Origin: Liolophura sinensis
Taxonomy: Eukaryota > Mollusca > Polyplacophora > Chitonida > Chitonidae
Length of the DNA: 64,000 bases
Assembly (NCBI RefSeq): GCF_032854445.1
Contig: NC_088295.1
Location: forward strand, 71,018,028 to 71,082,027
Reading direction: 5' to 3'
Shown: piece by piece, positions 1 to 20,394 of the stretch
Numbering within the stretch: position 1 is the first letter of the stretch
Layout of the letters: the number at the start of each line of letters is the position of its first letter
Program-made: the position numbers and the translations under genes
Notes under the pieces: generated by a model
Seen by the model: the letters and a program-made list of their open reading frames with translations, nothing else
Told to the model about the DNA's origin: nothing
Database searches by the model: none

Positions 1-3000
1 GCAATGCGATTTAAGGGACTAAACTACCTGGGGAACTCTCTGGATGTGGAAATAAAACAGTACTCAGTTCAGGTGATTTGTAGACTTGAGTCCAGAAAAC
101 ACCCTCTGATGCTGGAAAGTTTGGAGTCAGGTGTGCGTTATCATCTCAAACAAGGTAGGCCTAACTATAGTACAGATGTTCAGTCAACAGTTTAGTTGTT
201 CTGTCAAATCATTGTGCAAGTAGAGCAGGAAGGAAACATTAGCATGTCAAAGTGGAATCACTTGAACTAGATGTGACTGTATGAGGATAAGAAATATCAT
301 ACAAACTGTTGTAAAGTACCTGCCACTGGATAGTATTACCACAAAAAGTACATGTACATGTGTCAACTCTGGTTGTAGACTCTACATCTTTCTTGTTGCA
401 TGTTTATATTTATTGCATTTACACCTGTTGTTAACATTTGTGTATTCATAACATTTGTGCCAGTCAGTAAAGTCTGTCAGTTTATTGCAGATTAAACTGT
501 ATGACTTGTTACATTCAAGAGGATGTGTTAAAAACTTTCTACATGTATGTTTCAGACAAAGAATTAACATTTGGAAGAGAGCCTTTCACAGTTCGTGCTG
601 TTGATGTCACTGATTGTCCACTGCCAGAAGGTATGTTTATACCATACGCTGTCGATCTTTTTGTGGTTATTTATCCATACAGCAATTTCCCAAAACACAA
701 TTAGAGAATTAAATTACAAAATAGATGAAATGCCATGAAAAATTCTTGTTCTCCAGATGTTTCTAACAAATCCTTGTATAATGGCTATCTTCCAAATCCA
801 ACATACATACTCATGTACTTACATCTCTCTGTACTGTAAGGTGGCTCTTGCCCTGAGATCATCTGGAGGAAGACCCCTACAATGGTTCCCAAGCCCAAGT
901 ACAAGACAGTGGTTGTACGTCAGACAGGGGGTAACCGCTGCTTTGATCAGTCAGACTGTAAGAGTATTGTTGATCACAACCAGGTAGGACTTCTGATGGC
1001 ATACATGGAACTTTGGCACATCTGTGTGTAATATGTGTAGATATGTGATGTAGTACAAAGTTCTACCCCAGCTAAATGTTTCAGTTTCACACACCACAGA
1101 AAATACCTTGCGTTTTTAACCTTACTGTCGATGGCGAAGAAAAAAAATTCCTCATTCCGAATTTCATGGATTTGTCCTTGGCAGAAGGATGAGCTATGCA
1201 CAAAATTTAATCCAAATCCCTGCATAGCTTTTGCCATTAACTTGCTGACAGGCAAATTTGCTGACTCAGCAAAAAAAGTGCCCTCTTTTGGTAGTGGTAA
1301 TAAGCAAATGTGCATAATGTACACGAAGGGTTCAACTACATGTACCTGTGGGACATGAAAGTACGGGAATAATATAACCTACTACAGATGTGTCAAGAAT
1401 ATAGTTGGTGTTACTTTTTGTTGTTAATGATTTAAATGTGGTAAACAGTATTGTTTCAAAACATCCTGACTATGTACTATGGAGTTGTCAGACTTCATTT
1501 TTATGCCTTGTACTTGTGTCCAGATTGCTAACTTTTGCTGTCATTTTTGTGTTAGTTTAATTTGCTATTGTTCTCTCCAGACTTATGCAGGGTTTCACTT
1601 CTTGGTGGGGGATGATGGTAGGGTGTATGGAGGGGAGGGCTGGGACATTCCTACAGATGAAGCTTTGAGTGAGTATCTCAGATGTTCCAGCCACATGTAC
1701 ATGTATATGTAACCATAGCTAAGTTTGACCTCTTCGCTTGTTTGTTATTACCAAGTAATACTTATGGCTATATTCAAGTAAGAGTTCATTGACCAAACAA
1801 TTGACAGAATAAGATTTTTGACAAGTTATGCATTGTGGAATTTGGCCACTGCCAAGTTTCTATTCATTTTACTGCTGTAACATACATTCACCAACATGAA
1901 ATAACAGATGTGGTAATGAGAAAATTCTGAAATAAAACAGTCTTGTGTTTTGAGTGCCGATAATAAGGGATAATCCATCTAAATAAGGCCTCCGCTCCAT
2001 GCAGTAATCCACAGCATCGCCAGTAATCACCCAGTTTATAGGAACACGGCATGATGTCGTCTACGAACTCAACGATATACTTACCACTTACAAATCAGAA
2101 AATATATACAAGCTTTCATATCCACAAAACTTTTACTAAAAATGTACAACAGTTTCCGAGACAAACATTTGGAATTCATCTGACATTAACTGCCACCTTT
2201 GTCTTTGGCGATCCTTAAAATGCCAAAAGTTTTGATGAATATTGGATTTATTAATTACGTGAAACTGTAAAGCACAGATTATTAGTTTGGTAAATACAAA
2301 GATGGTTCGGATATTGTCCTATTTGGAAGAGTTCTCACCTTCAAACACATCCCCTATATGTACAACAGAATGGGTACGGAAAGGCCGTTAGTCTACTGAC
2401 GATAGACCAGCAATAGCTGATATCTATAAATTGTTATTCACTGTTATTTTTATCATCAATCCAGATCAAAGAGTAATTTACCGTATAGATTTTTGGAATG
2501 AGAAAACCAACAACAGAAATGTTCAAAGAGAAAATCTCTATTAAACGTTGTGAAAGTTATTAAAACAATCTTGTGTGTACATGCTCTGCATTCACCAACA
2601 TACAAGTAATGGGTATACAGTGTAGTAATAAGAAAAATCTGAAAAAAAGTCTTGTTTTGATTAATTATAATGAGGGATAATCCATCTAAATAAGGCTTCC
2701 ACTCCATTCAGTAATTCAGAGTCGCCAGTAATCCCCCCAGTTTATAGGAACACGGCATGATGTCGTCTCTGAACTCAACGATATACTTACCACTTACAAA
2801 AAAAAAAATATACACAAGCATTTCATATCCACAAAACTTTTACTAAACATGTGCAACAGTTACCGAGACAGACGTTTGGAAAGGCCGTTAATCCACCGGC
2901 GATAGAACGGCGATAGACCTGTGGATAGATAGCATGTTAGGCTTACATGGTGTGCTCCAAGGGACTATGTTGGTGTCTCAGACCACCCCCCACCTCCCCA

Positions 3001-6000
3001 CCCCATGGCAGTAAACAGTCCCGGTGATTAGGCTGGCGGGGGTGGGGGAAAACGCGATAACAACGCGAGAGAAAGCCGCGAAACAGTCTAGAGACACCCG
3101 ATAGATAGGCGGTAGAAAACCCGATAACTTTCCGTTTTGATGTGGGCTGTACTGTACGGTAGATATGATTTGCATGATTACTGTTGTAAGTATCACATCT
3201 TTCTTGTGCACACAAATAAATCATAGGAATAAGACGTTCTTTAAGATGTGCCTTAATTATGTTAGCTCTGGTCTGTTACAGAAATTGGTTTTATTGGAGA
3301 GTTCACTTGTAAGAAACCATCACAGTTGGCCATTGCTGCAGCGAAACAACTTATCAAGTGTAAAGTTGAGATGTAAGTGTTATTGCTGCACCCAAGGAGT
3401 CACCTACAAATGTAAATTGCAATGAATGGAATTCTGTACATGTACATAACAAAATGAAAAAAAAATAGTATATTCTGTAAAACGTATTTAAGTGCTTACT
3501 GTAATTACCTCAATGTCTTGTGCTCACAAGATGTGGAAGGTATAACGGAAAGCTGTTCAATGTACTCAATTATCATGTCTTGTGCTCACAAGATGTGGAA
3601 GGTATAACGGAAAGCTGTTCATTGTACTCAATTATCATGTCTTGTGCTCACAAGATGTGGAAGGTATAACGGAAAGCTGTTCAATGTACTCAATTATCAT
3701 GTCTTGTGCTCACAAGATGTGGAAGGTATAACGGAAAGCTGTTCAATGTACTCAATTATCATGTCTTGTGCACACAAGATGTGGAAAGTATAAGGGCAAG
3801 CTGTTCAATGTACTCAATTATCATGTCTTGTGCACCCAGGGGTACTATGCTGGAATATGACCATGGATTGTTAACTCTACTCTATAAATGTAGATTATTA
3901 TGTCTTGTGGGCACAAGAAATATGTTGGAGTATGATCAAAGCTGTTAAATGTGCTAAATGATAGTGTATTGTGCTGACAGGGGTATGTTGGAGTATGACT
4001 ACAAGCTGTTAACCCTACGTCAGACCAAAGACCCTGATTGTCAGACTGCTTACTGCCCGGGGGACAGACTGGACTGCGTCCTTATCACCTGGAAGGCCTG
4101 GGTATGAAACCATTATGACAACATTGTGTGTAGTCTTACTGCTTTATCTGAATTATTTGATATATATGCAGCAGTGTGAATCTTTGATTGGATAATTGAC
4201 TATCCAAAGATAATTTATAGATTTTTTAAGTTGCTTTATAGGCATCATATATTATATATCTTAATCCTAACATATACCCATGATGTATTAACTGACAGGC
4301 CATGATTGATAAGTATGTAATATTTTTATTTTTTGATTGTCTCTTACAATACAACCTGAACACTGGCGCAGTTACAACCTACTTGTTGCTGTCTAGTGAT
4401 TGAGGCCAGTTACGGTTCAGTTCAGTTCAGTTCAGGTTAAAGCTGTTCTTCTCAAACTGCTTATATGTGGAGAGTGATGAATTATGAAATAAAACCATGA
4501 ACTTCGAAAAGTCCCTCTCACTTTTGAGGAATGCCTGGAGAATTAACATTTCTGGAAAGCAGGAAAAGAGAACTACGTGAAAACCCAGTAAAGGCATGAA
4601 TTTTCAGAAACTATAATGTGGGCTTCAAAGACAACACGCTGTCCTGTCGATAAATTAACCTGTCAATTCCATGTTACTGGTGAGCCAATCATGTTGTATG
4701 TCACAGTGTTGAGTGTTGGGATAGTAAAGGTGAAATCAAGCTAACTAAGAAAGCTACTAATACCTTTTCAGTGTTTGGGTTGTAAGGTCATACTAAAGAT
4801 TTTTCCCTTATAATGCTGTAGAAGTCAGTTTTATGAGTGGAGGAAACCAATGTCCTTTGGCAAGTTATTAATGAACTTTCCGAAATGTAACATACAGATT
4901 TGAATTGTGCACCATTTTGGTGGAAAACAAGCCGTCTTTAATAGACTGCACGAGTGGGCCACATGAGTTTAAACGGGCTTGATGAATTCAAATTGGCCTT
5001 ATAAGTTTAAGTGGGCCCCATGAGTTCAAACGGGTCCCATGAGTTCAAACAGGCCCCATGAGTTCAAATGGGTATCCTGTGTGTCCAAGCAATATGGACA
5101 AATTTTATTATAGTCACATGTGTATTTGTTTCTGCCTGTAAACATTATAGTACTTTCATGCTGCTTAAATTTGGTATAAACTTTCTGTGATAAAGCGAGA
5201 ATTACGAGTGAGATGAATTGTTGATTTTTCTGAACAGGACAAGGAGCAAGTAGGAGGAAAGTTCCAGGCACCCAAATGTCATGGATCGTGTTTCCTGCCA
5301 GACCCCACTGCATCCTCCCACAGTAGTCAATACACAGATATCAGTGACCAACCTACACTTTTCCAAACCGAACAGTAAGTTATCACAGAGGTACACAGAT
5401 ATCATTGATTTGTCTACCGTCTTCCAGACCAAACAGTAAGTTAGTTGTACACAGATATCATTGATTTTGTCGACCATCTTCAAGACCAAACAGTAAGTTA
5501 CCTGTAAACAGATATCATTGATTTGTCGACCATCTTCAAGACCAAACAGTAAGTTACCTGTAAACAGATATCATTGATTTGTCTACCATCTTCTAGACCA
5601 AACTGTAAGTTAGCTGTACACGGATATCATTGATTTGTCAACTGTCTTCCAGACAAAACAGTAAGTTACACTGTACCTGTAAACAGGTATCATTGATTTG
5701 TCTACCATCTTCTAGACCAAACAGTAAGTTAGCTGTACACAGATATCATTGATTTGTTTACCGTCTTCCAGACCAAACAGTAAGTTAGCTGTACACGGAT
5801 ATCATTGATTTGTCAACTGTCTTCCAGACAAAACAGTAAGTTACACTGTACCTGTAAACAGGTATCATTGATTTGTCGAACATCTTCAAGACCAAACAGT
5901 AAGTTACCTGTAAACAGATATCATTGATTTGTCTACCGTCTTTCAGACCAAAGAGTAAGTTAGCTGTACACAGATATCATTGATTTGTCTACTGTCTTCC

Positions 6001-9000
6001 AGACCAAACAGTAAGTTAGCTGTACACAGATATCTTTGATTTGTCTACCGTCTTCCAGACCAAACAGTAAGTTAGCTGTACACAGATATCAGTGATATGC
6101 CTACGCTCTTCCAGGCCAGACAGTAAGCTAACTGTACACAGATATCAGTGATATGCCTACGCTCTTCCAGGCCAGAGAGTAAGCTAGCTGTACACACATA
6201 TCAGTGATATGCCTACGCTCTTCCAGGCCAGAGAGTAAGCTAGCTGTACACAGATATCAGTAATATGCCTACACTCTTCCAGGCCAGAGAGTAAGCTAGC
6301 TGTACACAGATATCAGTGATATGCCTACGCTCTTCCAGGCCAGACAGTAAGCTAGCTGTACACAGATATCAGTGATATGCCTACACTCTTCCAGGCCAGA
6401 GAGTAAGCTAGCTGTACACAGATATCAGTGATGTGCCTACGCTCTTCCAGGCCAGAGAGTAAGCTAGCTGTACACAGATATCAGTGATATGCCTACGCTC
6501 TTCCAGGCCAGAGAGTAAGCTAGCTGTACACAGATATCAGTAATATGCCTACACTCTTCCAGGCCAGAGAGTAAGCTAGCTGTACACAAATATCAGTGAT
6601 GTGCCTACGCTCTTCCAGGCCAGAGAGTAAGCTAGCTGTACACAGATATCAGTGATATGCCTATACTCTTCTAGGGCAGACAGTAAGCTAGCTGTACACA
6701 GATATCAGTGGTTTGCCTACACCCTTCCAAACCTATAGTAAGTTAACTGTACACTAGTCTGACATCAGCGATCTGCCTAACAGTTAAGTTAGCTGTATAC
6801 AGATATTGGTGATCTGCCTAAGAACAATATCCAGGTGTTAAATATTTCATTTCAGTGTATAAACACAGTGTATACTATCAGTTTTATTGTTTTGCAGACT
6901 CCCAGTGGACAGTAAAACTGGGAAGATTGACTTCAGCTATATGGCCTCTGTTTCAAACGGTCACCTAGCCACTGTGGTGTTCAGTGATACCATCTATGTC
7001 AATGGTCTTTACAATGAACATATGGGTAATTCTGTTTATGCATGTACTTGTAACTGTTAAGAAAATACACTTGAAGCATCATACAACTGTAATCATTAAC
7101 TTTTAATTCTATTCTTTATTATTTGCATTGGAACTACATGTACTCTATGTGTCCATGTATCTTATTAATGCACATAGTTTTTTTGGAGAAAAATAAACGG
7201 ACTTAAAATGTAGGCATCTTCTACCCTTGTCCTGTTCCTTTTCCAGACCATTAGGAGAAACTTATCCTTTACGAATCATGTGATCTTTCTGAAGACTCAG
7301 CTATTGTTGACATTACTGCATATTGTCAGTGTATGAAACCTTGACATTTAGGTTGGAGTCACCGCGCTCGTATCCCATCACCGAATGCTGTCAGAGTTGA
7401 CAGGATTGTGGAGGAAAACCCTGACAGGGTGAAGCGATTATTTACCCTTGATGTGGAGAAAGGTATGGGAAATGTTACTTTATGTTTAGCAGGGTGAAAT
7501 GTTACAGCTTTGCTTTGTCCCCAAATCAAGTGACAGAGTTTGGTATGTTCTGTGGTAAAATAACTCCAGAATGTTTGTACTGGATTGAGGTGGAGCTGAG
7601 GTCAAAACAAAAGTAATGTTACAGGTGTAAATATGCCAAAGACAAAAACCATTTCAGTGTTACGATGTGTAAAAGTGTGTTTTTTTTAATGTATTTTTTG
7701 CAATCACAAGTATTCATCATTTTCATTGGCTCTAAAAATCCTCTTGTTTTATGTTGCAGCTGTGTTTATGGAAACAATTGAGACCCCAAACCTGCTGGTT
7801 GTTGATCGTATCTACGCTCACCAGACGTTCACCCGTGTACTCATCACAGAGATAACAGTTACCAGAAAACCTTCAGCCAAAGGAAGCTTCATGCTCAAAC
7901 TTACCGGTAACCAAGGAAACGCCTCCATCGACTTGGAAATGCTGGAAGAAAGAAGCTACAATGGAAATGATGACAGCATTTTGTGAGTATTTACTCCTCT
8001 TTTCCTTGTTAGTTCTCAGACTTGATTGTGAAATGTCGAAATGTCAAAGTTCATCACACACTCTAGCAGTCAGTAACCATCAGATTTATTTCAAAATCCA
8101 TTCAGGATAATTTAATCTTCCTTTTTCTTTCTTGAGTACGCGTAGAACACTGATGAAATAAATAAATCAAAACTGATACTTAATACAACATGGATTCCTC
8201 AGGTCCATTAAAAAAAAGATTTTTAAGACTTTTATTGAAAAAAATTTCATTTTGGAATAAACCCTTGAAAGTACTTGTTAATATCATATTATACTATATT
8301 CAGAATGGACCGATATTAAAGTAAGCTGCCCAAATAGTATGTTATTAATTTTTTCTGAACGTTTTTTACTTAAATTGAATTGAATTTTGGGAACTCCTGA
8401 TTTTGGCATTAAACAACAATGAAAGGAGTAATTTGTCTGTGAAAGTGCTAGAAAACATGGGATGATAGTTCCCTGAAAGTCATTTTTTTATGGGTGGGAA
8501 CCCTGGACTACATTATATCAGGGCTGTGGATTAAGTATGCATGAACTTGTCTTGGTTATGATTCCTGTGAGAGATCGTATTCATAAGTATTTGGTTTTGT
8601 TTAATAAGGTTTAAGCACGCGAGGACATTGGTGCCTGAGATCAGGAATATGTCTACATCTGATGTGTACATGGTTTACACCATCACACCCCAGGAGTTGG
8701 TACTGACAGAAAACGAGAATACTAAGACCCTCTTCATCCTTACTTCTGTGGGTATGGATATCTCCAAAGTCACAGAAAACTTTGACAGTGTGGAAGGAAT
8801 GGTCGCTGCTAGTCCTAAATCAATCTATGAGACCCATGTTCTTGCCTGGAGAGAAAAGTGGAAGAGAGGTCACATTGAGATTGATGGCAATCTGAAGTTG
8901 TCTAAGCTGGTGTATGGCTGTTTTTATTATTTGTTGAGTTTCCTGCCCTCCACACAACCCTTCAGTCCTAGTCAACCATTTAATGGTCTCAGTCCCGGCG

Positions 9001-12000
9001 GCCTGGCAAATGGTGCCAACTGGACAGACTATCAGGGTCACGTGTTCTGGGACATGGAGACCTGGATGTATCCCACAATGCTCATGTTCCACCCAGAACT
9101 TGCCAAGGAGATGCTGTCGTACAGGATTCGAGGAATGAAGTATGCATATGACCGAGCTCGAAGCGGTGGATATGAGGGCTTGAGATTTCCATGGGAAGCA
9201 GCTCAGACTGGAATTGAGGTGACACCAGATATTTGCGTGCCCTGTCGGGAAAACCAACTTCACATCACGGGAGATATCGCCATGGCAGCCAAACAGTTCA
9301 TGAGTGTCACTAAAGATCTTCACTGGCTTAAGTCTGAGAAAGGATACACACTTATCAAAGACATTGCTAGATTCTGGAAGTCTAGACCCACATGGAACGA
9401 GGCAAAACAGGAGTATGAAATTAAAGGTATGAAAATTGTTATGACTGTGTGTAATCACCTCATGATAGGATGCTGTGATCCATAGACAGAGATCTTATAA
9501 ACATCTTTAAATGTTTATAACCTAAAAAGTCAAGAGCATATATCATACAGAAATATCATGTCATACAGTAACAGGAATATCATGTCATAAGGTGACAGGA
9601 ATATTATGTCATACTGAAACAGGAATATCTCATATGGTAAGAGGAATATCATGTCATATGCTAACAGGAAAATCATGTCATACAGTGACAGGAATATCAT
9701 GTCATATGCTAACAGGAATATCATGTGATAGGGTGACAGGAATATCATGTCATACTGAAACAGGAATATCTCATATGGTAAGAGGAATATCATGGCATAC
9801 ATTAACAAGATTATCATGTCATATGGTGACAGGAATATCATGTCATACTGAAACAGGAATATCATGTCATACTGTAATAGGAATATCATGTCGTACTGTA
9901 ACAAGAATATCATGTCATACAGTAACAGGAATACCATGTCATATGGTAACAGGAATATCATGTCATACAGTGACAGGAATATAATGTCATACAGTCACAG
10001 GAATATCATGTCACACAATCACAAGAATATCATGTCATACAGTAAAAGGTATATCTTGTTATACAGTAATAGTAATGTTGAGTACTACATTATCAGTTTG
10101 AAATGACACCTTGGATCTAATCTGGATTGACCTGTGTTCTTTTATGGACACCTTGGCACCATATGTTAACAGTTTGCCTCGAAATCATCATTCTAAAGGC
10201 AGAAATGAACAATAGACGACACGGCTAGTGGTTGATTTACGTGTACTTTATGCAGGAACAAGTCCTCACAAATGCAGTAATATTTGCCAACAGGATGTAA
10301 TGCCATGTACATGTATCTTATCCAGCAGAAACATTTATATAGATATATGTATTCACTGTGTGGTAAATATGTAATTCGTGCATGTGTATGTTTGTCTTAC
10401 AGGAGTGATGCCCCCTGATGAGCATGCTCAGAATGTGAGTAACTCTGTCTACACCAATGTCCAGGCTCAGCTCAGCATTTACTATGCCCGTTACATGGCC
10501 TGTATCAACAATCTCAATGCCAGGACAGAGGTGACGGATGACTGGCTACATGTAGCTGACAATTTACATATTCCTTTTGACGAGACGCGAATGTTTCACC
10601 CAGAGTATGAGGGATATGTGGAAGGCTCAGGTAAAACTTGTACATGGCAGTACCTGCAATGATGTATTCTTTCAGTTGCTACACATGTATATATCTTTTT
10701 TGTCATATTTAATGGCAGTTTAGACAATTTTCTTCATCTTCATAATTTTACTGGAAACAAGAAAAGAAAGCACTTAGGACTGAAAAACTTAAAAATACAA
10801 TGTTTACACAAACTTGGAATAAAAGCTGTAAAGGTGATGTCTCCTCCAAAATGAAAAGTTTACCTCTAATTATGAATTGATAGTAATAGTGATGTGTCAT
10901 TTGTGACATATTTTGGTGAAAACTTCCAGATAATCGTGGCGTGAAACAGGCTGATGTGATACTGTTAGGCTTCCCGTTGATGTACAACGTGAGTGAAGAG
11001 GTACGACGAAACGACCTGCTACACTACGAGCGTGTCACAAATGCCTTTGGGCCGGCCATGACCTGGGGAATGTTTTCTATTGGCTGGTTGGAACTTGGTG
11101 ATATAGACAAGGCAGCAGAGTTATTTACCAAAAGTTATGAGCTCTATACCAGAGAACCCTTCAAGGTGAGGATAATATACAGACATACAGTCTTGGTTTG
11201 TTTGTTTCTTGTTTTAAATACATTCTTGCCACAGTATGGCTGCAATATTGCCGCAGTAGCATTAAGCTATAATCATTCATTTCATGGATGTATTTGCAAT
11301 AAATTTTGTTGGAGACCAAGAGAAAAAAATGCCCACATTGTCAGCAGTAAATCTATTGATTGATTATGGTAACAATACATCAGTCAGATGATGGTAGTTT
11401 GTTTGGAACTGTAACATTGTCATTCTAGTTTACAATCACAACTTTACAAGGCATAAAGATAGTTGGCACCACTGAACCATTCATGTGTTTATTGGTGAAA
11501 CCTGAGGCAATGGCACCCAACCCACTTCTGATTGAAGCTCCTGTACGCAACCTCTATGGAAATTGTAACTTGGATGACATGAATTTAAGATTAAAGTATG
11601 TAGAACAGTTTCAACTGGATAACTCTTATTTGATATGACGTTTTGCCGTTGTGGTTGTTGCTTCTGGTAGAAATTAGATCACACAAACCAAAAGCAGAGT
11701 TAACATCTAAGGGTAGTTTTTAAAAGGATTTGTGTTACTGAGTAACTCATTGCAGAAAGTATGTTTTATGATTCATCAATTGGATAAATGTAATTACTAT
11801 GAAATATTGTGTAAACCAAGTGGTTGTTTACCAGATCTGGACAGAGGCTCGCTCTGGTATTGGAGCTGTCAACTTTATCACTGGAATGGGAGGCTTCCTC
11901 CAAGCTGTGTACTTTGGCTATGGTGGGGTTCGTATTTACAATGAACACATGAGCTTTAACCCGCGTCTGCCCCCTATGACATCTGGGTTACGCCTGTTAG

Positions 12001-15000
12001 GGATGAACTACCTGGGGAACAGCCTGGATGTAGTGATACGTCACAACACTGTCAGCATCACGGTCACCCACAGCTCGCAGCTAGAGCCGCTCTATCTCAA
12101 GGTGCTCTCTACACAGGCAGTGTATGATCTGCAGCTGGGTGAGTAGTAATGCCTGCACTCTCAGGCAATTGTTCACCAACTAATTACACTGATACTGTGT
12201 GAAGTGTTGTACAGAAGGCAGATTAGTTTATGAAAAATCGTATAAACTTATATGTAATTTACAGTAAATCAGCCGGATTACAGTACAGCCGGATCCTCGC
12301 CAAATATCCTATACCTATCGTGGCCAGGCAGTCCATCGTGGATCAGGGTCCACGTATTATGGATGGGCCATCTGTTCACGGCTTGGCCATCATACACATA
12401 ACGTGCTACTGCCCATGCTGTTTTGTTACAGACTTTACGGCAAATCCATCCTGTCCTCATGTTTTGATGAGTATTTTTGCCTGCTTGACAATTTCCCGTA
12501 ATATTGGAGTGTATTGTACAAGTGTTTATAGCCTACTACTGGAGACTGTTGTGCACGCATACACCTTGTAAAGATTGGGAACATAGACAAATGATGCTGT
12601 GACGTCATCATTAGCTGCAGTAAATAATCTGCAGACATAAAAGTAATTACATTGTTGAAGAGTTTTCAAGTTAACTCGTCCCAAGAATATACTCATGTAG
12701 CAGTTATGTTGATGCCATAAAATCATGTAAACATAAAATCATATGCATACAGTAGAACATGATCCCACCATGGTGGTGCCATGATACATGCCCATTGTAC
12801 ACGTACAGTGGAACACAGTCCCACCACGGTGGCGCCATGATACATGCCCATCATACACGTACAGTGGAACATGATCCCACATGGCGGTGCCATGATACAT
12901 GCCCATCATATGTGTACAGTGGAACATGATCCCACCGTGGTGGCGCCATGATACATGCCCATCATATGCGTACAGTAGAACATGATCCCACTGTGGTGGC
13001 GCCATGATACATGCCCATCATATGCGTACAGTAGAACATGATCCCACCATGGTGGCGCCATGATACATGCCCATCATACACATACAGTGGAACATGATCC
13101 CACTGTAGCGGTGCCATGATACATGCCCATCATACGCGTACAGTGGAACGTGATCCCACCATGGTGGCGCCATGATACATGCCCATCGTACGCGTACAGT
13201 GGAACATGATCCCACTGTGGCGGTGCCATGATACATGCCCATCATACGCGTACAGTGGAACGTGATCCCACTGTGGCGGTGCCATGATACATGCCCATCA
13301 TACGCGTACAGTGGAACATGATCCCACTGTGGCGGTGCCATGATACATGCCCGTCATACGCATACAATGGAACATGATCCCACCATGGCGGTGCCATGAT
13401 ACATGCCCATCGTACGCGTACAGTGGAACATGATCCCACTGTGGCGGTGCCATGATACATGCCCATCATACACGTACAGTGGAACATGATCCCACCATAT
13501 TGGCACCATGATACATTCCCATCATATGCGTACAGTGGAACATGATCCCACCACGGTTGCGCCATGATACATTCCCATCATATGCGCACAGTGGAACATG
13601 ATCCCACCATGGTGGTGCCATGATACATGCCCATCGTACGCGTACAGTGGAACACGGTCCCACCGTGGTGGTGCCATGATACATGCCCATCATATGTGTA
13701 CAGTAGAACATGATCCCACCATGGTGGCGCCATGATACATGCCCATCATATGCGTACAGTGGAACATGTTCGCACCATGGTGGCGGCATGATAATGCCCA
13801 TCATACGCGTACAGTGGAACATGATCCCACCATGGTGATGCCATGATACATGCCCATCGTACGCGTACAGTGGAACACGATCCCACCATGGTGGCGCCAT
13901 GATACATGCCCATCATATGCGTACAGTGGAACATGATCCCTCCATGGTGGCGCCAGGATACATGCCCATCGTACACGTACAGTGGAACATGATTCCACCA
14001 TGGTGGCGCCATGACACATGCCCATCGTACGCGTACAGTGGAACATGATTCCACCATGGTGGCGCCACGATACATGCCCATCGTACACGTACAGTGGAAC
14101 ATGATCCCTCCATGGTGGCGCCACGATACATGCCCATCGTACACGTACAGTGGAACACAATCCCACCATGGTGGCGCCATGATACATGCCCATCGTACGC
14201 GTACAGTGGAACATGATTCCACCATGGTGGCGCCACGATACATGCCCATCGTACACGTACAGTGGAACATGATTCCACCATGGTGGCGCCACGATACATG
14301 CCCATCGTACACGTACAGTGGAACATGATCCCTCCATGGTGGCGCCACAATACATGCCCATCATACACGTACAGTGGAACATGATTCCACCATGGTGGCG
14401 CCATGACACATGCCCATCGTACGCGTACAGTGGAACACGATGCCACCATGGTGGCGCCACGATACATGCCCATCGTACACGTACAGTGGAACATGATCCC
14501 ACCATGGTGGCGCCACGATGCATGCCCATCGTACGCGTACAGTGGAACATGATTCCACCATGGTGGCGCCATGATACATGCCCATCGTGCGCGTACAGTG
14601 GAACATGATCCCTCCATGGTGGCGCCATGATATATGCCCATCGTACACGTACAGTGGAACATGATCCCTCCATGGTGGTGCCATGATACATGCCCATCGT
14701 ACACGTACAGTGGAACATGATTCCACCATGGTGGCGCCATGACACATGCCCATCGTACGTGTACAATGGAACATGATCCCACCATGGTGGCACCACGATG
14801 CATGCCCATCGTACGCGTACAGTGGAACATGATCCCACTATGGTGGCGCCATGATACATGGCCATCGTACGCGTACAGTGGAACATGATCCCACCACGGT
14901 GGCGCCATGACACATGCCCATCGTACGTGTACAATGGAACATGATCCGACCATGGTGGGCCCACCATACACTGACTGTGGAACCATGATGGGCGTAAGAT

Positions 15001-18000
15001 ATTTGGCTGGAATGTCGGCTGTACTGTAGCTCCAGAAGATTTAGTTGGTGAAAAACTTCAAGGAATTATTGGTGATTTAATGTCCTGTATTAAGACCTAC
15101 TTGGAGGATGTTAAATGTATGATTCAGATATGTTCTTGAACATTTCACTATATTTTTATAGCTGAATGGTACAAATGCTTCATATAGACAATTACTAGAT
15201 ATACATCCCAGCTATGGTACCTTCCTTCCTCTTACTCCTATGTTACTGTACACTAATACGTGTATGGTTTGTCTTTGCAGATGTGGAGGTTGTGATAAAG
15301 AAAGAAGCTTTCACCATAGCATCCTACCATGTATCAGACTGCCCATATCCCCAGGGTAATTTATGAACTATTACCATTACAAAACTATTGCCTACAATAC
15401 TGGCAGATGTATTGACATTGGGCTCGTAAGGTTTGTGGTATTCAGTAACTGGTTCTCAGGGAGCAAAGGAATGATCTTCACTGTGCTGGTTACATGTCTC
15501 AAGTCTCAAAATCTCAAAATCTTTATGTAAAATGTAGGGTGGATGCAGCAAGTGTCTGTGTGACCTTCATACCCAAGAGTTCCTGTTTCAGGTCTTTAAA
15601 GATATTAAAATTGGCATCCATAGTACTTTGTCACTGGACACTCAGCATAAATGAATAGAGCACATAGCAGATGACCCAGTGTCAATATATCATGAGGTGA
15701 GTGGGGCATCATGTCTGGTGTCTTCAGACTGCAGCTGGCCTACCAGTGTCAGCTTCATGTTCCAGGTATGTTGATACTATTGTAGTAAGACTGAAATATT
15801 GTTGATGTATTAACCTTGAAAGACAAAAAAAACAAATTGAAGCAAATTTATCCGTCCTCAGGTGTAGTGATATTGATTACTCATAATGTTGATGTGATTA
15901 TCATGATGGATGATGGATGTCCAGTTCTTCTCACTCCTCAATAAATTTAACTAAGGAAGTTTTGTATGATATTTAGAATTAATCACATATTTATAGAGCC
16001 AGCCGTGTATTAAGACACTGGAAACAAACTGCCATGAACAATGTAAATATTGTAGATCCAGTGTGCCCAGCTGTGATTAGTCGCAGGGACTGGAGCTCTT
16101 CTATGATGGAGGACGCAGAGATGCTGGGGCACCCCGTGGGCAACGTGATAGTGTACCAGACATCAAGCAGGAACTGTTACAGCAGACAGTCATGTGGGAA
16201 GGAGGCCAAGTCACAGCTGGTATAGTTGCCAGAACCATGTTGTCTTGGACATATCACATTCTATCAACCTCAGTTGTCAATTGCTTCACAGGTCTCCCTG
16301 TTCAGTCCTGCAGTTTTTTTTAGGCATGCATAAAAAAAGACAAGAAAGATGGAAAAGACACACAAATACACAGAATTTGGAAAAAGACCATATTTAATTA
16401 ATGAGGAAGGAATGAAAAATAATCATACTATTAAAGCACATGTACATCAATATGATTGAGTTTTTAGGTTACTCATAACCCTTTTGAAGAGATATCCTCA
16501 AGATCTGATTTATTCATTGCAGAATTCTGAAGGGCATGTTAAATATAACTTCCTCATTGGTGAAGATGGTAGCATATTTGAAGGACGGGGATGGAAGTTG
16601 GCTGGAGATCATTCAGAAGATTTCAATACCAAATCAATAGGTCAGCAGTGGTCTGCTATTTCTGATGTTTTATTTTGACTTTTTCTCATGGGGATGTATA
16701 TTACACACCTATTGGCAGGTTTTTAGGTTTTATCTTGGCCACTATGTAGCTTTTTTGGATTTCATCACATGCATTGGTCCTTCTTGTGCAATGTGAAATT
16801 GGCATGAGTAAAGCTTATGTGGTAACTAAAATATTTGAGCTTATCAAAACAAAATGTTCACAATATGTCAAAAGAGACACCATACCATTGAACATCGAAA
16901 TATTCATTGTACACGATCTCATATCTAATACATGACATTTACACGTACTTGACTGGTGTTGAATGTCCTGCTGAAGAATACTCGTATGACAACTGTAATT
17001 CAGCCTGTTTGCAAGATGTTTATTCAAGCATATTCTGATGGTATTATTCTGTGTTCACTGATAAAAATATACTTTTTGTGAAGCCATGAAATCGGTCAAT
17101 CCAACCAATGTAGTTTTTTCTCCAAAATCAAGTTAAAAACATAGATAAATTGCAGTGAAAGTTGTAATTTCATATGGAAAAAAGTTGAAAAATTACGGTA
17201 GGAGACAGCCAGGCTGTAGCGTGGGGAGTAAGCCACCACCCAGACAAAACTACATGTATATTACTAGTATATGGGGTAGGGACAAGATGCAGACTATGCT
17301 GTACAATTTTCATTGAGTTACCTGTACTTCAGCGGGACTTGTTTGATTTCAGCTATTGCACTGCTAGGTAATTTTACAACTGCTGGACCAAGCAAACGGG
17401 GGATGTCAGCTGTGAAACTATTAATAAAGTGTGGAATGGAAATGTAAGTGCAGTGCTGTAACATTTGCTGTCACATTCTCTCAGGTAAATGTACATAGTT
17501 TGAATAGAAAGCTTGTAAAACATAAAACATTTGCAATGCTTCTGATCTGAAATCTCAAAGAGACAAGATCTCTGATGTGTTTCAGTTATAATAAGATAAT
17601 TCAAACAGTCTTTTTCTGTGGTGACAGATAGGTAGAAGAGATAGGGGTGATGTAATGGATGTGGTGACAGATAGGTAGAGAGATAGGGGTGATGTAATGG
17701 ATGCACCTGCAGCATTCCAGTTTCCCATGGATCATTTCACATAATAGCATTTTACATTTATGCGTGTTATGTCATGTCTGCTCAGCTTACTTGTTAGATT
17801 TGGTTAATTTTGCTTTTAGTGGGAAGATCAATGAGACGTACAGTTTGATGGGAGAGAAGCAGATCCGAGCTGGTACCTGTGACACCTGTCCTGCTGACAG
17901 ACTGCTGTGTGAACTGATGAAGTCTCACAGATGGGTACGTCTCTCTTGCCCAATCTCTGCTATTATTAGCAGACTCTCTACTGATGGTTACTGTCTCTAT

Positions 18001-19142
18001 TATTAGCAGACTCTCTACTGATGGTTATTGTCCCTATTATTACCAGACTCTCTACTCATGGTTATTGTCTCTATTATTAGCGGACTCTCTACTGATGGTT
18101 ACTGTCTCCATTATTAGCAGACTCTCTACTAATGGTCATTGTCCCTATTATTACCAGACTCTCCACTGATGGTTGTTGTCTCTATTATTAGCAGACTCTC
18201 TACTGATGGTTACTGTCTCTATTATTAACAGACTCTCCACTGATGGTTATTCTCTCTATTATTAATAGACTCTCCACTGATGGTTACTGTCTCTATTATT
18301 AGCAGACTCTTTACTGATGGTTACTGTCTCTGTTATTAGCAGACTCTCTACTGATGGTTATTGTCTCTATTATTGGTGTACTCTCTACTCATGGTTATTG
18401 TCTCTATTATTAGCAGACTCTCTACTGATGGTTATTGTCTCTATTATTAGTGGACTCTATACTCATGGTTATTGTCTCTATTATTAGCGGAATCTCTACT
18501 CATGGTTATTGTCTCTGATATTAGTAGACTCTATACTGATGGTTATTGTCGCTATTATAAGCGGACTGGTTACTGTCAACAGCTAATCCTCAATAATGCT
18601 TGACCAATGAATTTAATCCAGTTGTTGCTGGTTCAGCTGCACCCAAAAGTCGGGGTGCTTGTTGGGTATCTTGCAAAAGGGCTATGGTTTACTCCCGCAG
18701 ACCGGTTTCTTCCGCCATAAACTTGGTAATCGTCAGAAGTGAATAAACGAGTACAACGTTATCCTCAATAACATATTTCCTACTGGTAATATTGGGGAAA
18801 CATTGAAAATGGGAATTAAAAAGCATTGAACTACATAATTTTCACCTTGAAAATCAAATTTTGTGGACCTTAATTTTACCATTTGGGCTGTGTTATGTAC
18901 TTACAGTTATGTTTGAAGCAGATACAAAATAACTGATTTTCTCTCTTGTGTTTCTCTCCTCACAGCACAATTACCAGGCAGGTGGGTCATTCAAAGCCCC
19001 ATGCTGTATGGAGGTGTGTGGGGAAGACAAGAAAACCACCCCCAAGCCTACATCCAAGCCGAGCTCTGTCTCCACCCCACTGTTTACACGGACTCATACC
19101 CTGGTCATCCTTACAGCACTTATTACTGGACTGCTCTTATAG
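1..19142 (+). CDS. PGGHG (GH65-like)-PGRP tandem fusion, GPI-anchored, 5' partial
   Basis: The 3' part of a multidomain ectoprotein. Exons: 1-154, 556-630, 841-983, 1581-1668, 3282-3372, 3981-4101, 5238-5374, 6898-7025, 7352-7462, 7760-7982, 8609-9426, 10403-10630, 10930-11165, 11835-12138, 15281-15355, 16062-16219, 16523-16640, 17353-17443, 17820-17934, 18966-19142. Together they give 3591 nt, 1196 codons plus stop. Domain order in the fragment: end of one PGGHG unit (residues 1-51), linker, PGRP (about 77-224), Cys-rich linker, complete PGGHG unit (about 270-952), linker, PGRP (about 977-1138), Lys/Pro/Ser/Thr stalk, short hydrophobic end ([14 protein letters not shown]). The two halves share exon lengths (75 and 91 nt exons recur) and phases, so one module was duplicated inside the gene. 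The Thr/Ser stalk plus hydrophobic end with no cytoplasmic tail reads as a GPI signal. The start lies upstream of the window. Joining all exons in one transcript is inference. Confidence 0.8.
1860..2935. repeat. Two diverged direct copies of a non-coding segment in an intron
   Basis: The stretch near 1870-2430 recurs at about 2590-2935 in the same order. Shared words include GGGATAATCCATCTAAATAA, TTTATAGGAACACGGCATGA, CTCAACGATATACTTACCAC and AAAGGCCGTTA. Both lie in the intron 1669-3281. Either a local tandem duplication or two copies of one interspersed element; no coding capacity was seen. Confidence 0.7.
3512..3980 (+). repeat. 62-bp tandem array built from a 3' splice site and exon start
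   Basis: At least five near-identical 62-bp units (ATGTGGAAGG starts at 3531, 3593, 3655, 3717, 3779) are followed by two diverged units (about 3830-3890 and 3900-3955). The true exon starting at 3981 is the last member. Each unit has a TGTCTTGTGCTCACAAG-like acceptor and a decayed copy of the exon start. The diverged units resemble the exon most: one reads [11 protein letters not shown] against [11 protein letters not shown] in the exon. Confidence 0.85.
4963..5072 (+). repeat. Short 20-22 bp tandem repeat (CCCATGAGTTCAAACGGG type)
   Basis: Five to six imperfect copies of a GGGCCCCATGAGTTCAAACG-like unit lie in the intron 4102-5237. The rest of that intron shows only a CAGTT/TTCAG short repeat near 4411-4436. 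Confidence 0.7.
5335..6830 (+). repeat. About 25-copy, ~56-bp array of an exon end plus 5' splice site
   Basis: The first unit is the real 3' end of exon 5238-5374 with its donor (GAACA|GTAAGT). Downstream units repeat ACACAGATATCAGTGAT, CTCTTCCAG, then ACCAAACAGTAAGTTAG or GCCAGAGAGTAAGCTAG. I count about 25 GTAAG sites from 5375 to about 6740. Late units are spaced exactly 56 bp (for example 6235 and 6291). The earlier third carries GTAAGT, the later two thirds GTAAGC. Confidence 0.92.
6898..12138 (+). other. Complete PGGHG / GH65-like catalytic unit (7 exons)
   Basis: Exons 6898-7025 to 11835-12138 encode about 680 residues resembling protein-glucosylgalactosylhydroxylysine glucosidase (ATHL1/PGGHG; human protein about 737 aa). 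That enzyme removes glucose from Glc-alpha-1,2-Gal-hydroxylysine. Landmarks in order: [47 protein letters not shown] (Asp at 9051-9053), [10 protein letters not shown] (Glu at 10420-10422), [42 protein letters not shown] (Glu at 11844-11846), [11 protein letters not shown]. The three acidic residues match the carboxylates reported essential in the human enzyme (Asp301, Glu430, Glu574). This unit therefore looks active. Its true substrate is unknown. Confidence 0.88.
9538..10075 (+). repeat. 24-bp minisatellite in a PGGHG intron
   Basis: About 22 copies of an AGGAATATCATGTCATACAGTAAC-like unit lie in the intron 9427-10402. The period equals eight codons, so long open frames on both strands (MSYSNRNI-like on +, MIFLLPYD-like on -) are by-products. 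The rest of the intron shows nothing else. Confidence 0.9.
12738..14972. repeat. 56-bp minisatellite, about 40 copies, palindrome-rich
   Basis: The unit holds GTACAGTGGAACATGATCCC, CACCATGGTGGCGCCATGAT and ACATGCCCATCGTACGC. It fills most of the intron 12139-15280. Two perfect palindromes recur in many units: CCACCATGGTGG and GTACGCGTAC. Because 56 is not a multiple of three and no frame of the unit has a stop, open frames of up to 388 codons appear on the minus strand. They repeat every 56 residues and are not a gene. Confidence 0.95.
16062..17934 (+). other. Second PGRP domain, zinc site lost
   Basis: Four exons (16062-16219, 16523-16640, 17353-17443, 17820-17934). Landmarks: [66 protein letters not shown] and CPADRLL. 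The first zinc His is Tyr and the second is Glu; the Cys before Pro is kept. The core YNFLIGEDG and GRGW motifs are better preserved than in the first PGRP domain. The exon phases match the first copy one for one. Confidence 0.87.
17945..18575 (+). repeat. 37-bp minisatellite next to a PGRP splice donor
   Basis: About 17 copies of a CAGACTCTCTACTGATGGTT + ACTGTCTCTATTATTAG unit in the intron 17935-18965. The unit segment GATGGTTACTGTCTCT resembles the exon end and donor beside it (GATGG|GTACGTCTCTC at 17930-17945). Confidence 0.88.
18640..18775 (+). repeat. SINE tail fragment
   Basis: Words such as CTTGCAAAAGGGCTATGGTT, TACTCC and CCGCCATAAACTTGG match a family seen again near 25425, 33383 and 37700. 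It lies between the 37-bp array and the last coding exon. Confidence 0.45.
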
Positions 19143-19149
19143 TAGATAA

Positions 19150-20394
19150 TATAGTCTATACATGTAATACACAGATCTGTCATGTAATTCACAGATCTGT
19201 CATGTAATTCACAGATCCGTCATGTAATACACAGATCTGTCATGTAATTCACAGATCTGACATGTAATACCCAGATCTATACACCTAATAAACGGATCTG
19301 TCATGTAATTCACAGATCCGTCATGTAATACACAGATCTGACATGTACATATACCTATGTTCATGTTTATGTGACAACCGAGCCATTAATCAAAGGTTTG
19401 CATTTTTTTTCTTTGAGGAGACATTATCACCAAGGAGTATTACCTAGTTTCTGTTATCAATTCCGTGGAGGAGTATGATGTAATTTTGTCAACATTTCTG
19501 CTGATATTTATATAAACTTTCAAGTTTACTGAAACAATGAAGACTTGACATTTTCTTCTTATATGTAATTACTAGGTCACAGAGTGCAAGTTAGACTTCC
19601 TCAATATAATCTGTACATGTAATACCCAGATCTATACACCTAATAAACAGATCTGTCATGTACTACACCGATCTGACATGTAATACACAGCTCTGACATG
19701 TAATACCCAGATCTATACACCTAATAAACAGATCTGTCATGTACTACACCGATCTGACATGTAATACACAGCTCTGACATGTAATACCCAGATCTATACA
19801 CCTAATAAACAGATCTGTCATATACTACACCGATCTGACATGTAATACACAGCTCTGACATGTAATACCCAGATCTATACACCTAATAAACAGATCTGTC
19901 ATGTACTACACCGATCTGACATGTAATACACAGATCTGACATGTAATACCCAGATCTATACACCTAATAAACAGATCTGTCATGTACTACACCGATCTGA
20001 CATGTAATACACAGCTCTGACATGTAATACCCAGATCTATACACCTAATAAACAGATCTGTCATGTACTACACCGATCTGACATGTAATACACAGCTCTG
20101 ACATGTAATACCCAGATCTATACACCTAATAAACAGATCTGTCATGTACTACACCGATCTGACATGTAATACACAGCTCTGACATGTAATACCCAGATCT
20201 ATACACCTAATAAACAGATCTGTCATATACTACACCGATCTGACATGTAATACACCGATCTGACATGTAATACACAGATCTGACATGTACATATGTTCAT
20301 GTTTATGTGACAACCGAGCCATTAATCAAAGGTTTGTATTTTCTTTCTTTGAGGAGACATTATCACCAAGGAGTATTACCTAGTTTCTGTTATC
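19150..20394 (+). repeat. Higher-order minisatellite in the 3' UTR with a poly(A)-signal word per unit
   Basis: It begins just after the stop codon with roughly 20-bp units (ACAGATCTGTCATGTAATTC type, 19150-19345). From about 19608 to 20290 four such sub-units form an 81-bp higher-order unit repeated about eight times (AATACCCAG at 19621, 19702, 19783). Each 81-bp unit contains CCTAATAAACAG, so AATAAA recurs every 81 bp. A flank of about 115 bp is present twice, at 19341-19458 and 20283-20394, so the block was duplicated with its flank. Confidence 0.88.

What the first reader, a model, noticed from the sequence alone, without database searches (positions are those of the whole stretch)
1..19142. 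A tandem collagen-glucosidase/peptidoglycan-recognition fusion
Seen: PGGHG end, PGRP, full PGGHG, PGRP and a GPI-like tail join in one phase-consistent exon chain of 1196 codons, with matching exon lengths in the two halves. Known: PGGHG acts on Glc-Gal-hydroxylysine; PGRPs bind bacterial wall. Inference: a membrane-tethered ectoenzyme aimed at bacterial wall glycans (alpha-1,2-glucosyl decorations such as kojibiosyl teichoic acids would fit the linkage) or at collagen-like immune proteins. I know of no described protein with this order.
Basis: partly seen in the sequence, partly recalled or inferred. Interest (0 to 1): 0.88.

Follow-up and report, generated by a model that had tools for sequence, protein, structure and literature searches.

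The report
Giant five-fold chiton glucosidase-PGRP protein
A chiton gene appears to encode one very large cell-surface protein made of five copies of a sugar-cutting enzyme, each followed by a bacteria-recognition-type domain that has lost its own enzyme activity, and a similar layout is predicted in limpets and abalone, so it is probably very old in molluscs.

Summary
The exon chain is real. I rebuilt 20 exons (1198 codons plus stop), and a database protein of hidden source, P0127, matches them letter for letter. The window shows only the gene's end. Upstream, on the same contig, the same GH65-PGRP module repeats: five units, 65 exons, 4,646 residues, about 526 kDa. A signal-type exon precedes unit 1 and a GPI-like tail follows unit 5. 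My exon search imposed GT-AG and phase, but predicted proteins P0001 and P0127 agree with it over all but 16 residues; the single unsupported join lies inside unit 2. The contig matches Liolophura sinensis. Predicted proteins of Haliotis asinina (three units) and Patella caerulea (two) share the layout. GH65 trees pair units 3 and 4 with different abalone units, and one clade of the five chiton units is rejected (p-AU 0.0002), so part of the array seems to predate the chiton-gastropod split. Catalytic carboxylates are kept in units 1, 3, 4 and 5, not in unit 2. No fused PGRP keeps all three amidase zinc ligands (0 of 15). Best reading: a tethered multivalent alpha-1,2-glucosidase with non-amidase PGRP modules. 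Substrate and biology are unknown.

The parts
1..154 (+). 3' part of exon N of unit 4 (end of GH65; exon begins at window-relative -149, upstream of the window)
   Evidence: agrees with P0127
556..630 (+). unit 4 exon O, hinge
841..983 (+). unit 4 exon P, start of PGRP domain
1581..1668 (+). unit 4 exon Q, PGRP
3282..3372 (+). unit 4 exon R, PGRP
3981..4101 (+). unit 4 exon S, PGRP
5238..5374 (+). unit 4 exon T: PGRP tail plus inter-unit linker; donor GTAAGT overlaps an in-frame TAA (5376-5378)
6898..7025 (+). unit 5 exon H, GH65 N-terminal region
7352..7462 (+). unit 5 exon I, GH65
7760..7982 (+). unit 5 exon J, GH65
8609..9426 (+). unit 5 exon K, GH65 catalytic region with FWD aspartate and PWE
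10403..10630 (+). unit 5 exon L, GH65, general-acid Glu (PPDE)
10930..11165 (+). unit 5 exon M, GH65
11835..12138 (+). unit 5 exon N, GH65, general-base Glu (IWTE) and C-terminal domain
15281..15355 (+). unit 5 exon O, hinge
16056..16219 (+). unit 5 exon P, PGRP
16523..16640 (+). unit 5 exon Q, PGRP
17353..17443 (+). unit 5 exon R, PGRP
17820..17934 (+). unit 5 exon S, PGRP
18966..19142 (+). unit 5 exon T: PGRP tail, Thr/Ser/Pro-rich stalk, hydrophobic GPI-like C-terminus, stop
   Evidence: similar ends in P0121 and P0128
19287..19292 (+). first AATAAA after the stop (possible poly(A) signal; further copies lie in a tandem repeat)

Best explanation
The window holds the last one and a half units of one gene. 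It encodes a secreted polyprotein of five GH65-PGRP modules (signal peptide, five modules joined by short linkers, GPI-like tail; 4,646 aa). Shown: the sequence, agreement with two predicted database proteins over all but 16 residues, and a shared layout in predicted proteins of other molluscs. Inferred from catalytic residues: GH65 domains 1, 3, 4 and 5 are working anomer-inverting exo-alpha-glucosidases, with alpha-1,2 linkages most likely, and domain 2 is a dead spacer or scaffold. Inferred: the five PGRP domains have lost zinc-amidase chemistry and act as binding or spacing modules, so the protein works as a membrane-tethered multivalent glucosidase that strips glucose from surfaces or oligosaccharides held close to the epithelium. 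This is the organisation of lactase-phlorizin hydrolase, built from other domains. My preferred setting, a guess, is the gut or mucus surface of grazing molluscs, acting on microbial and biofilm glycans.
For: A 65-exon chain of 4,646 codons without internal stop. The finder itself demanded AG/GT sites, phase and open frames, so 64 of 64 GT-AG introns is by construction; the evidence is the similarity of the exons found. On the reverse strand of the same 52 stretches the same finder scored lower in 52 of 52. P0001 is identical over its first 1473 of 1478 residues, and P0127 is an exact suffix from residue 1490. Signal-type exon before unit 1 and hydrophobic tail after unit 5. Haliotis P0128 (three units plus tail) and Patella P0121 (two plus tail) have in-frame linkers at the same place. 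The GH65 tree pairs u3-Hasi002 and u4-Hasi128_a; the AU test rejects one chiton clade, p 0.0002. FWD Asp and the base Glu are kept in 32 of 33 rows and the acid Glu in 33 of 33. These two Glu are Gln in the deposited human PGGHG chains 9sd6 and 9sd5 and align with FjGH65A Glu472/Glu616. PWE, matching FjGH65A Trp391/Glu392, is kept in 10 of 11 array units; unit 1 has PWQ. Amidase_2 is found in all five chiton PGRPs. P0007 (1003 aa on a 3135-base contig, so probably a transcript) joins GH65 and PGRP in one frame.
Against: The database splits the array into two predicted proteins inside unit 2: P0001 ends there with a short alternative exon and P0127 starts at an internal Met. I saw no RNA read. 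The inter-unit intron 2-3 holds hydrophobic ATG frames that could be a signal exon (6 of 8 candidates). The PGRP part is fast-evolving (mean 34% identity), and in the AlphaFold2 model of Haliotis P0002 it is of low confidence (blocks of 24-58 pLDDT after about residue 760, against mostly about 90 in the GH65 part), so its fold was not confirmed by modelling. The u5 grouping is not starred. Enzyme activity, substrate, GPI anchoring and tissue are untested. The Haliotis units lie in separate models with one contig length; adjacency was not checked.
Confidence: 0.55

Rival explanations
1. Two transcription units split inside unit 2, as in the database: SP-GH65-PGRP-half GH65 (P0001), and a downstream product with the rest of unit 2 and units 3-5 (P0127).
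For: Both predicted proteins end or start there; P0001 uses a terminal exon DVFSRA* (codons from -19872); unit 2 has lost catalytic residues and has a long branch.
Against: P0127 starts mid-domain at an internal Met without a signal peptide, P0001 ends mid-domain, and an in-frame, phase-correct L2-M2 splice exists that completes the GH65 domain. Even then, units 3-5 remain one three-unit protein covering the window.
Confidence: 0.2
2. Five (or several) separate neighbouring single-unit genes wrongly joined, as appears to have happened in the Batillaria model P0129, which has a signal-peptide-like stretch inside.
For: Single-unit proteins with a hydrophobic tail are predicted in other gastropods (P0007, P0009); hydrophobic ATG frames exist before unit 3.
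Against: No hydrophobic start candidate in 3 of 4 inter-unit introns; linkers at the same place in Liolophura, Haliotis and Patella proteins; only unit 5 has the tail; each T exon is phase-matched to the next H exon in P0001 and P0127.
Confidence: 0.07
3. An immune effector or recognition device: PGRP domains bind bacteria and GH65 removes alpha-glucosyl decorations.
For: PGRP homology (best PDB match E 1.2e-29); the PGRP part diverges faster than GH65 in 55 of 55 pairs, as antigen-binding parts often do; alpha-1,2-type GH65 residues.
Against: No evidence of wall binding; zinc-amidase site lost in 15 of 15 domains compared; fast divergence is equally expected from relaxed constraint.
Confidence: 0.25
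4. A PGGHG-like collagen-glycan enzyme (Glc-Gal-Hyl), for connective-tissue or egg-coat turnover, with PGRP domains as inert spacers.
For: Closest solved homologue of the GH65 part is human PGGHG (E 1.8e-144); the three carboxylates are conserved in units 1, 3, 4 and 5.
Against: Other GH65 loci exist in the same genome; the tree places the array outside the clade with vertebrate PGGHG (root not inferred); PGGHG also cleaves kojibiose at about one fifth of the rate (PMC8626586 passage), so homology does not fix the substrate.
Confidence: 0.2

Closest known systems
Protein-glucosylgalactosylhydroxylysine glucosidase (PGGHG/ATHL1, GH65)
   Same: GH65 domain and catalytic Asp/Glu/Glu; human enzyme is the best solved match
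   Different: Array: signal-type exon, five copies in one chain, each fused to a PGRP domain; one copy without two of the carboxylates; substrate untested
FjGH65A, bacterial alpha-1,2-glucosidase (PMC8626586, passages read)
   Same: Inverting GH65 hydrolase acid and base positions; Trp-Glu of the +1 site matched by PWE in 10 of 11 array units
   Different: Bacterial enzyme; Thr407 not matched; no PGRP
Peptidoglycan recognition proteins (PGLYRP/PGRP; e.g. PGRP3, PDB 4z8i, amphioxus by recall)
   Same: Amidase_2/PGRP domain; YNFLxGxDGxxYxGxGW-type core in most array units
   Different: Zn ligands lost (all three: 0 of 15); placed after GH65 domains; no such fusion in the papers listed by my searches
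Lactase-phlorizin hydrolase and the Aplysia kurodai 210K beta-glucosidase (PMC3675134; abstract and passages read)
   Same: Works-like analogue: large digestive glycosidase; for the 210K enzyme inhibition kinetics suggest two active sites like those of LPH; LPH having several GH1 domains, not all active, is recalled
   Different: GH1 beta-glucosidases, not GH65; no PGRP domains; not related in sequence
Single-unit GH65-PGRP proteins of gastropods (P0007, P0009, P0129 halves)
   Same: Same module with a hydrophobic tail
   Different: One unit per protein; form a sister group to the array units in the GH65 trees

Membership tests
GH65 glycoside hydrolase | GH65 catalytic domain (Pfam PF03632/PF03633) | tested here: met
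   unit 5: 181.7 bits; 3 stretches in P0127, 2 in P0001
GH65 glycoside hydrolase | General acid Glu and hydrolase-type general base Glu | tested here: met
   met in 4 of 5 chiton units (1, 3, 4, 5); not met in unit 2, which keeps the acid but has Ser for the base and Tyr for the FWD Asp
PGGHG (collagen Glc-Gal-Hyl glucosidase) | Hydrolysis of Glc-alpha-1,2-Gal-Hyl | not testable with these tools
   needs enzyme assay
PGGHG (collagen Glc-Gal-Hyl glucosidase) | Orthology to vertebrate PGGHG | tested here: inconclusive
   array units lie on the other side of a 100/99 branch from the vertebrate and abalone PGGHG-like rows, but the root is only a midpoint
PGRP | PGRP/Amidase_2 domain | tested here: met
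   by sequence; the AlphaFold2 model of a Haliotis relative has low confidence in this part
PGRP amidase | Zinc ligands His, His, Cys | tested here: not met
   first His 3 of 15, second His 0 of 15, Cys 11 of 15, all three 0 of 15 (ligand positions recalled)
PGRP | Peptidoglycan binding | not testable with these tools
   needs binding assay
GPI-anchored proteins | N-terminal signal peptide and C-terminal hydrophobic tail after a small-residue stalk | tested here: inconclusive
   both present by hydropathy, similar ends in Patella and Haliotis; no GPI predictor or lipid evidence
Tandem-repeat digestive glycosidase (LPH-like organisation) | Several glycosidase domains in one polypeptide | tested here: met
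   predicted proteins P0127, P0128, P0121; digestive role not tested
Lactase-phlorizin hydrolase family | GH1 domains | tested here: not met
   domains are GH65; analogy only

The most novel reading that the evidence does not exclude
A half-megadalton surface enzyme, present as a multi-unit array since the last common ancestor of chitons and gastropods, in which non-catalytic PGRP domains capture microbes or their wall fragments and four GH65 domains strip alpha-1,2-glucosyl groups from them: a PGRP-guided polyvalent glycosidase used for feeding on, or policing, microbial films.
Probability: 0.2. Interest if true: 0.88.

Novelty: new variant of a known kind. Interest (0 to 1): 0.72.

Why it matters
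It adds a domain combination (GH65 with PGRP) and a scale (five repeats, about 526 kDa) that the seven paper searches aimed at it did not show. Units 3 and 4 pair with separate abalone units, so the array looks like an old molluscan invention rather than an annotation curiosity. It makes a simple question testable: whether PGRP domains that lost their amidase site serve as targeting modules for a glycosidase. It also supplies candidates for new alpha-1,2-glucosidases. For annotation, it shows a large gene probably split into two predicted proteins at its degenerate repeat.

Tried and rejected
In-frame TAA after exon 5238-5374 as a true stop: rejected, because a phase-2 exon with a GTAAGT donor always reads xxG-TAA, and homologues and P0127 continue across it. 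Open frame near 11430-11596 between exons M and N as an exon: rejected by eye, since the direct M-N join is phase 0 on both sides, matches homologues, and P0127 lacks the insert. First acceptor for unit 5 exon P (15997): rejected for phase; 16056 fits and agrees with P0127. Assembly duplication: rejected, chiton units are 40-55% identical to each other. Chiton-specific expansion: rejected by the AU test (the test of units 3-5 was framed after the first tree, and unit 2 is a long branch). Zinc-amidase function: rejected. PGRP tree: too weak to use (10 of 13 inner branches open, long branches). Batillaria P0129 looks like two single-unit genes merged (internal signal-like stretch). AlphaFold2 of Haliotis P0002 (not finished at ten collections, finished): mean pLDDT 76.9, the GH65 part mostly about 90, the PGRP part mostly under 60, so it neither confirms nor refutes the PGRP fold; no fold search was run. 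Family search PF03632 in the own genome did not complete, so the GH65 gene count is only a lower bound. Paper searches aimed at the fusion listed no paper on it; of the papers they listed I read passages only in PMC8626586, PMC8537180 and PMC10142993.

Full report
CHECK OF THE OBSERVATION. From the sequence alone I rebuilt 20 exons over 1-19142: 3597 bases, 1198 codons plus stop, one frame throughout. Pfam assigns Glyco_hydro_65m (E 2.7e-53), Glyco_hydro_65C and Amidase_2 (2.5e-13) to the full unit, and Amidase_2 (2.3e-7) to the piece before it. The one weak point, an in-frame TAA right after the exon that ends at 5374, is what any phase-2 exon with a GTAAGT donor shows. The peptide on both sides of that splice (...[27 protein letters not shown]...) matches linkers in Haliotis (QYEDISNDPTVFQTDSLPRKG) and Patella (LYEDTSKIATVFATERLPMKP).

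THE WINDOW SHOWS ONLY THE END. The genome search placed the window at G000:C1:71018028-71082027; G000 has 609,464,459 bases in 632 contigs. An assembly first published as L. japonica was later corrected to L. sinensis (PMC12441733, whole text read); that it is this assembly is my inference. Upstream, 40 kb held the same module again and again on the same strand. A splice-site and phase-aware search found a best exon for each of 13 types in units 1-4. Nine boundaries were then set by hand from P0001, from phase or from a better acceptor, one of them merging exons Q and R of unit 1. The chain has 65 exons and 13,941 bases, no internal stop, 4,646 residues, units of 927, 914, 924, 904 and 929 residues, about 526 kDa. 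It runs from C1:70,982,722 to 71,037,169. The finder required AG/GT sites, phase and open frames, so GT-AG in 64 of 64 introns and equal phases are partly by construction. Control: on the reverse strand of the same 52 stretches the same finder scored lower in 52 of 52 (smallest margin 28.4, unit 2 exon O).

INDEPENDENT MODELS. P0001 equals the chain for its first 1473 of 1478 residues. P0127, found after the chain was built, is an exact suffix from residue 1490. Its name and source are hidden because the window encodes it. Both are gene predictions. They cover all but 16 residues and every unit-to-unit junction. The one join that is mine alone is exon L2 to exon M2. P0001 instead runs into a six-codon exon with a stop there, while P0127 starts at an internal methionine in mid-domain. 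I read this as an annotation break in the degenerate unit, but two transcripts cannot be excluded without RNA.

ONE GENE OR MANY. A signal-type exon precedes unit 1. I looked for ATG frames ending at a phase-2 donor: 11 before unit 1 (2 hydrophobic, one of them the exon used by P0001), and 0, 8, 3 and 2 in the four inter-unit introns, with hydrophobic ones 0, 6, 0 and 0. So intron 2-3 contains candidates that could act as a start, and this counts against certainty, although P0127 splices across it. Only unit 5 ends in a stop, after a Thr/Ser/Pro stalk and a hydrophobic tail.

OTHER SPECIES. Of the 120 listed of 362 hits, five cover more than 77% of the unit: P0001, P0002 (Haliotis asinina), P0004 (Batillaria), P0007 (unnamed source) and P0009 (Babylonia). 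The four with names are molluscs. The other 242 hits were not shown. P0007 is 1003 aa on a 3135-base contig, so it has no room for introns and is probably a transcript. The PGRP-part search gave 6 hits, of which only Patella P0121 carries GH65. The multi-unit search gave 9 hits, of which 4 have several units: P0127, Haliotis P0128 (three units plus tail), Patella P0121 (two plus tail) and Batillaria P0129 (apparently two merged genes). Haliotis P0002 begins with what looks like the end of a preceding PGRP. P0002 and P0128 share a contig length; adjacency was not checked.

AGE. The GH65 tree has 33 rows of my choosing; P0004 and P0127 were left out as overlapping other rows, and most single-domain hits were not used. 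Lsin_u3 pairs with Hasi002 (100/99), Lsin_u4 with Hasi128_a (98/98), Hasi128_b with Pcae_a (100/100) and Hasi128_c with Pcae_b (100/99). Lsin_u5 joins the last two pairs at 91/95, not starred; all array units together are not starred either (81/89). A tree of 20 of the 33 rows gives the same pairs, and the AU test rejects the five chiton units as one clade (p 0.0002) and units 3-5 as one clade (p 0.0013; this group was named after the first tree). Hence at least units 3 and 4, and probably 5, had separated before chitons and gastropods parted. The PGRP tree was too weak to test this.

ACTIVE SITES. Across 33 GH65 rows the FWD aspartate and the base glutamate are kept in 32 and the acid glutamate in 33. 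The exception is chiton unit 2 (Asp to Tyr, base Glu to Ser). Two deposited human PGGHG chains carry Gln at the base (9sd5) and the acid (9sd6) position, and FjGH65A Glu472/Glu616 align there (PMC8626586, passages read). That three carboxyls are crucial in human PGGHG is the title of a reference seen; their numbers (301, 430, 574) are recalled. The Trp-Glu that FjGH65A uses for kojibiose matches PWE in 10 of 11 array units; unit 1 has PWQ. Thr407 is not matched. This favours alpha-1,2-glucoside hydrolysis but does not name the substrate.

PGRP DOMAINS. Amidase_2 is detected in all five chiton domains (4 stretches in P0127, 1 in P0001). Against PGRP3 of PDB 4z8i, used as template, the first zinc His is kept in 3 of 15 domains, the second in 0, the Cys in 11 and all three in 0 (ligand positions recalled). 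The set is 5 chiton, 4 Haliotis, 2 Patella, 2 Batillaria, 1 Babylonia and 1 unnamed. Over 55 pairs of array units the GH65 part averages 54.9% identity and the PGRP part 34.2%, with GH65 higher in 55 of 55. So the PGRP part is either under weak constraint or fast-changing for a reason. An AlphaFold2 model of Haliotis P0002 from 22 sequences is good in the GH65 part and poor in the PGRP part, where few rows of the alignment reach; it settles nothing about the PGRP.

HOW IT LIKELY WORKS. The chain is secreted, probably lipid-anchored, and presents four GH65 sites with intact carboxylates on a string with five non-amidase PGRP modules. The nearest working model is lactase-phlorizin hydrolase and, in molluscs, the Aplysia 210K beta-glucosidase, for which inhibition kinetics suggest two active sites like LPH (PMC3675134, abstract and passages read). 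My preferred setting is digestion or surface clearing of microbial and biofilm glucosides by grazing molluscs. Immune use and collagen-glycan turnover are live alternatives. Two further GH65 loci lie on C6, one with kept motifs and one that has lost the acid motif; no PGRP match was found beside them. Since the PF01510 search of the own genome also missed the array's own PGRPs, that absence is only suggestive.

NOVELTY. The parts are known. The combination, the repeat number and the conserved layout were not seen in the listings of the seven paper searches aimed at them (three others had other aims). Predicted records exist in databases under 'uncharacterized', 'hypothetical' or 'glucosidase-like' names. 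I rate it a new variant of a known kind.

Noticed in passing
window 5331-6754: About 25 copies of a 56-bp minisatellite in intron T4-H5. The first copy is the 3' end of coding exon T4 with its splice donor, and 24 of 24 intervals cut between repeat starts carry the donor-like GTAAG; an exon end and its donor were apparently multiplied into the intron.
   Followed up: partly
window 12748-14958 and 9547-10076: Further long minisatellites (56 bp x 39.5 and 24 bp x 22.3) inside introns of unit 5; the first has long stop-free frames.
   Followed up: no
C1:70997768-70998313 (upstream of the window): The intron at which the database splits the gene appears to hold a SINE-like insert (judged by eye) before the alternative six-codon exon used by P0001.
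   Followed up: no
window 30392-31534 +: Open frame with weak Armadillo-type matches (ZER1-like below its cut-off, Arm just above). A frame at 33957-34514 looks by eye like a TIR/SAM part of the same gene, but Pfam gave no match.
   Followed up: partly
window 55792-56214 +: Open frame that looks by eye like the start of a multi-pass transporter; no Pfam match.
   Followed up: no
L028-L031 (C6:2.45-2.47 Mb): A further GH65 locus with a lost general-acid motif (PPGK instead of PPDE), apparently another dead GH65.
   Followed up: partly
window 19610-20281: 81-bp tandem repeat downstream of the gene whose consensus contains AATAAA; AATAAA recurs every 81 bases there.
   Followed up: no
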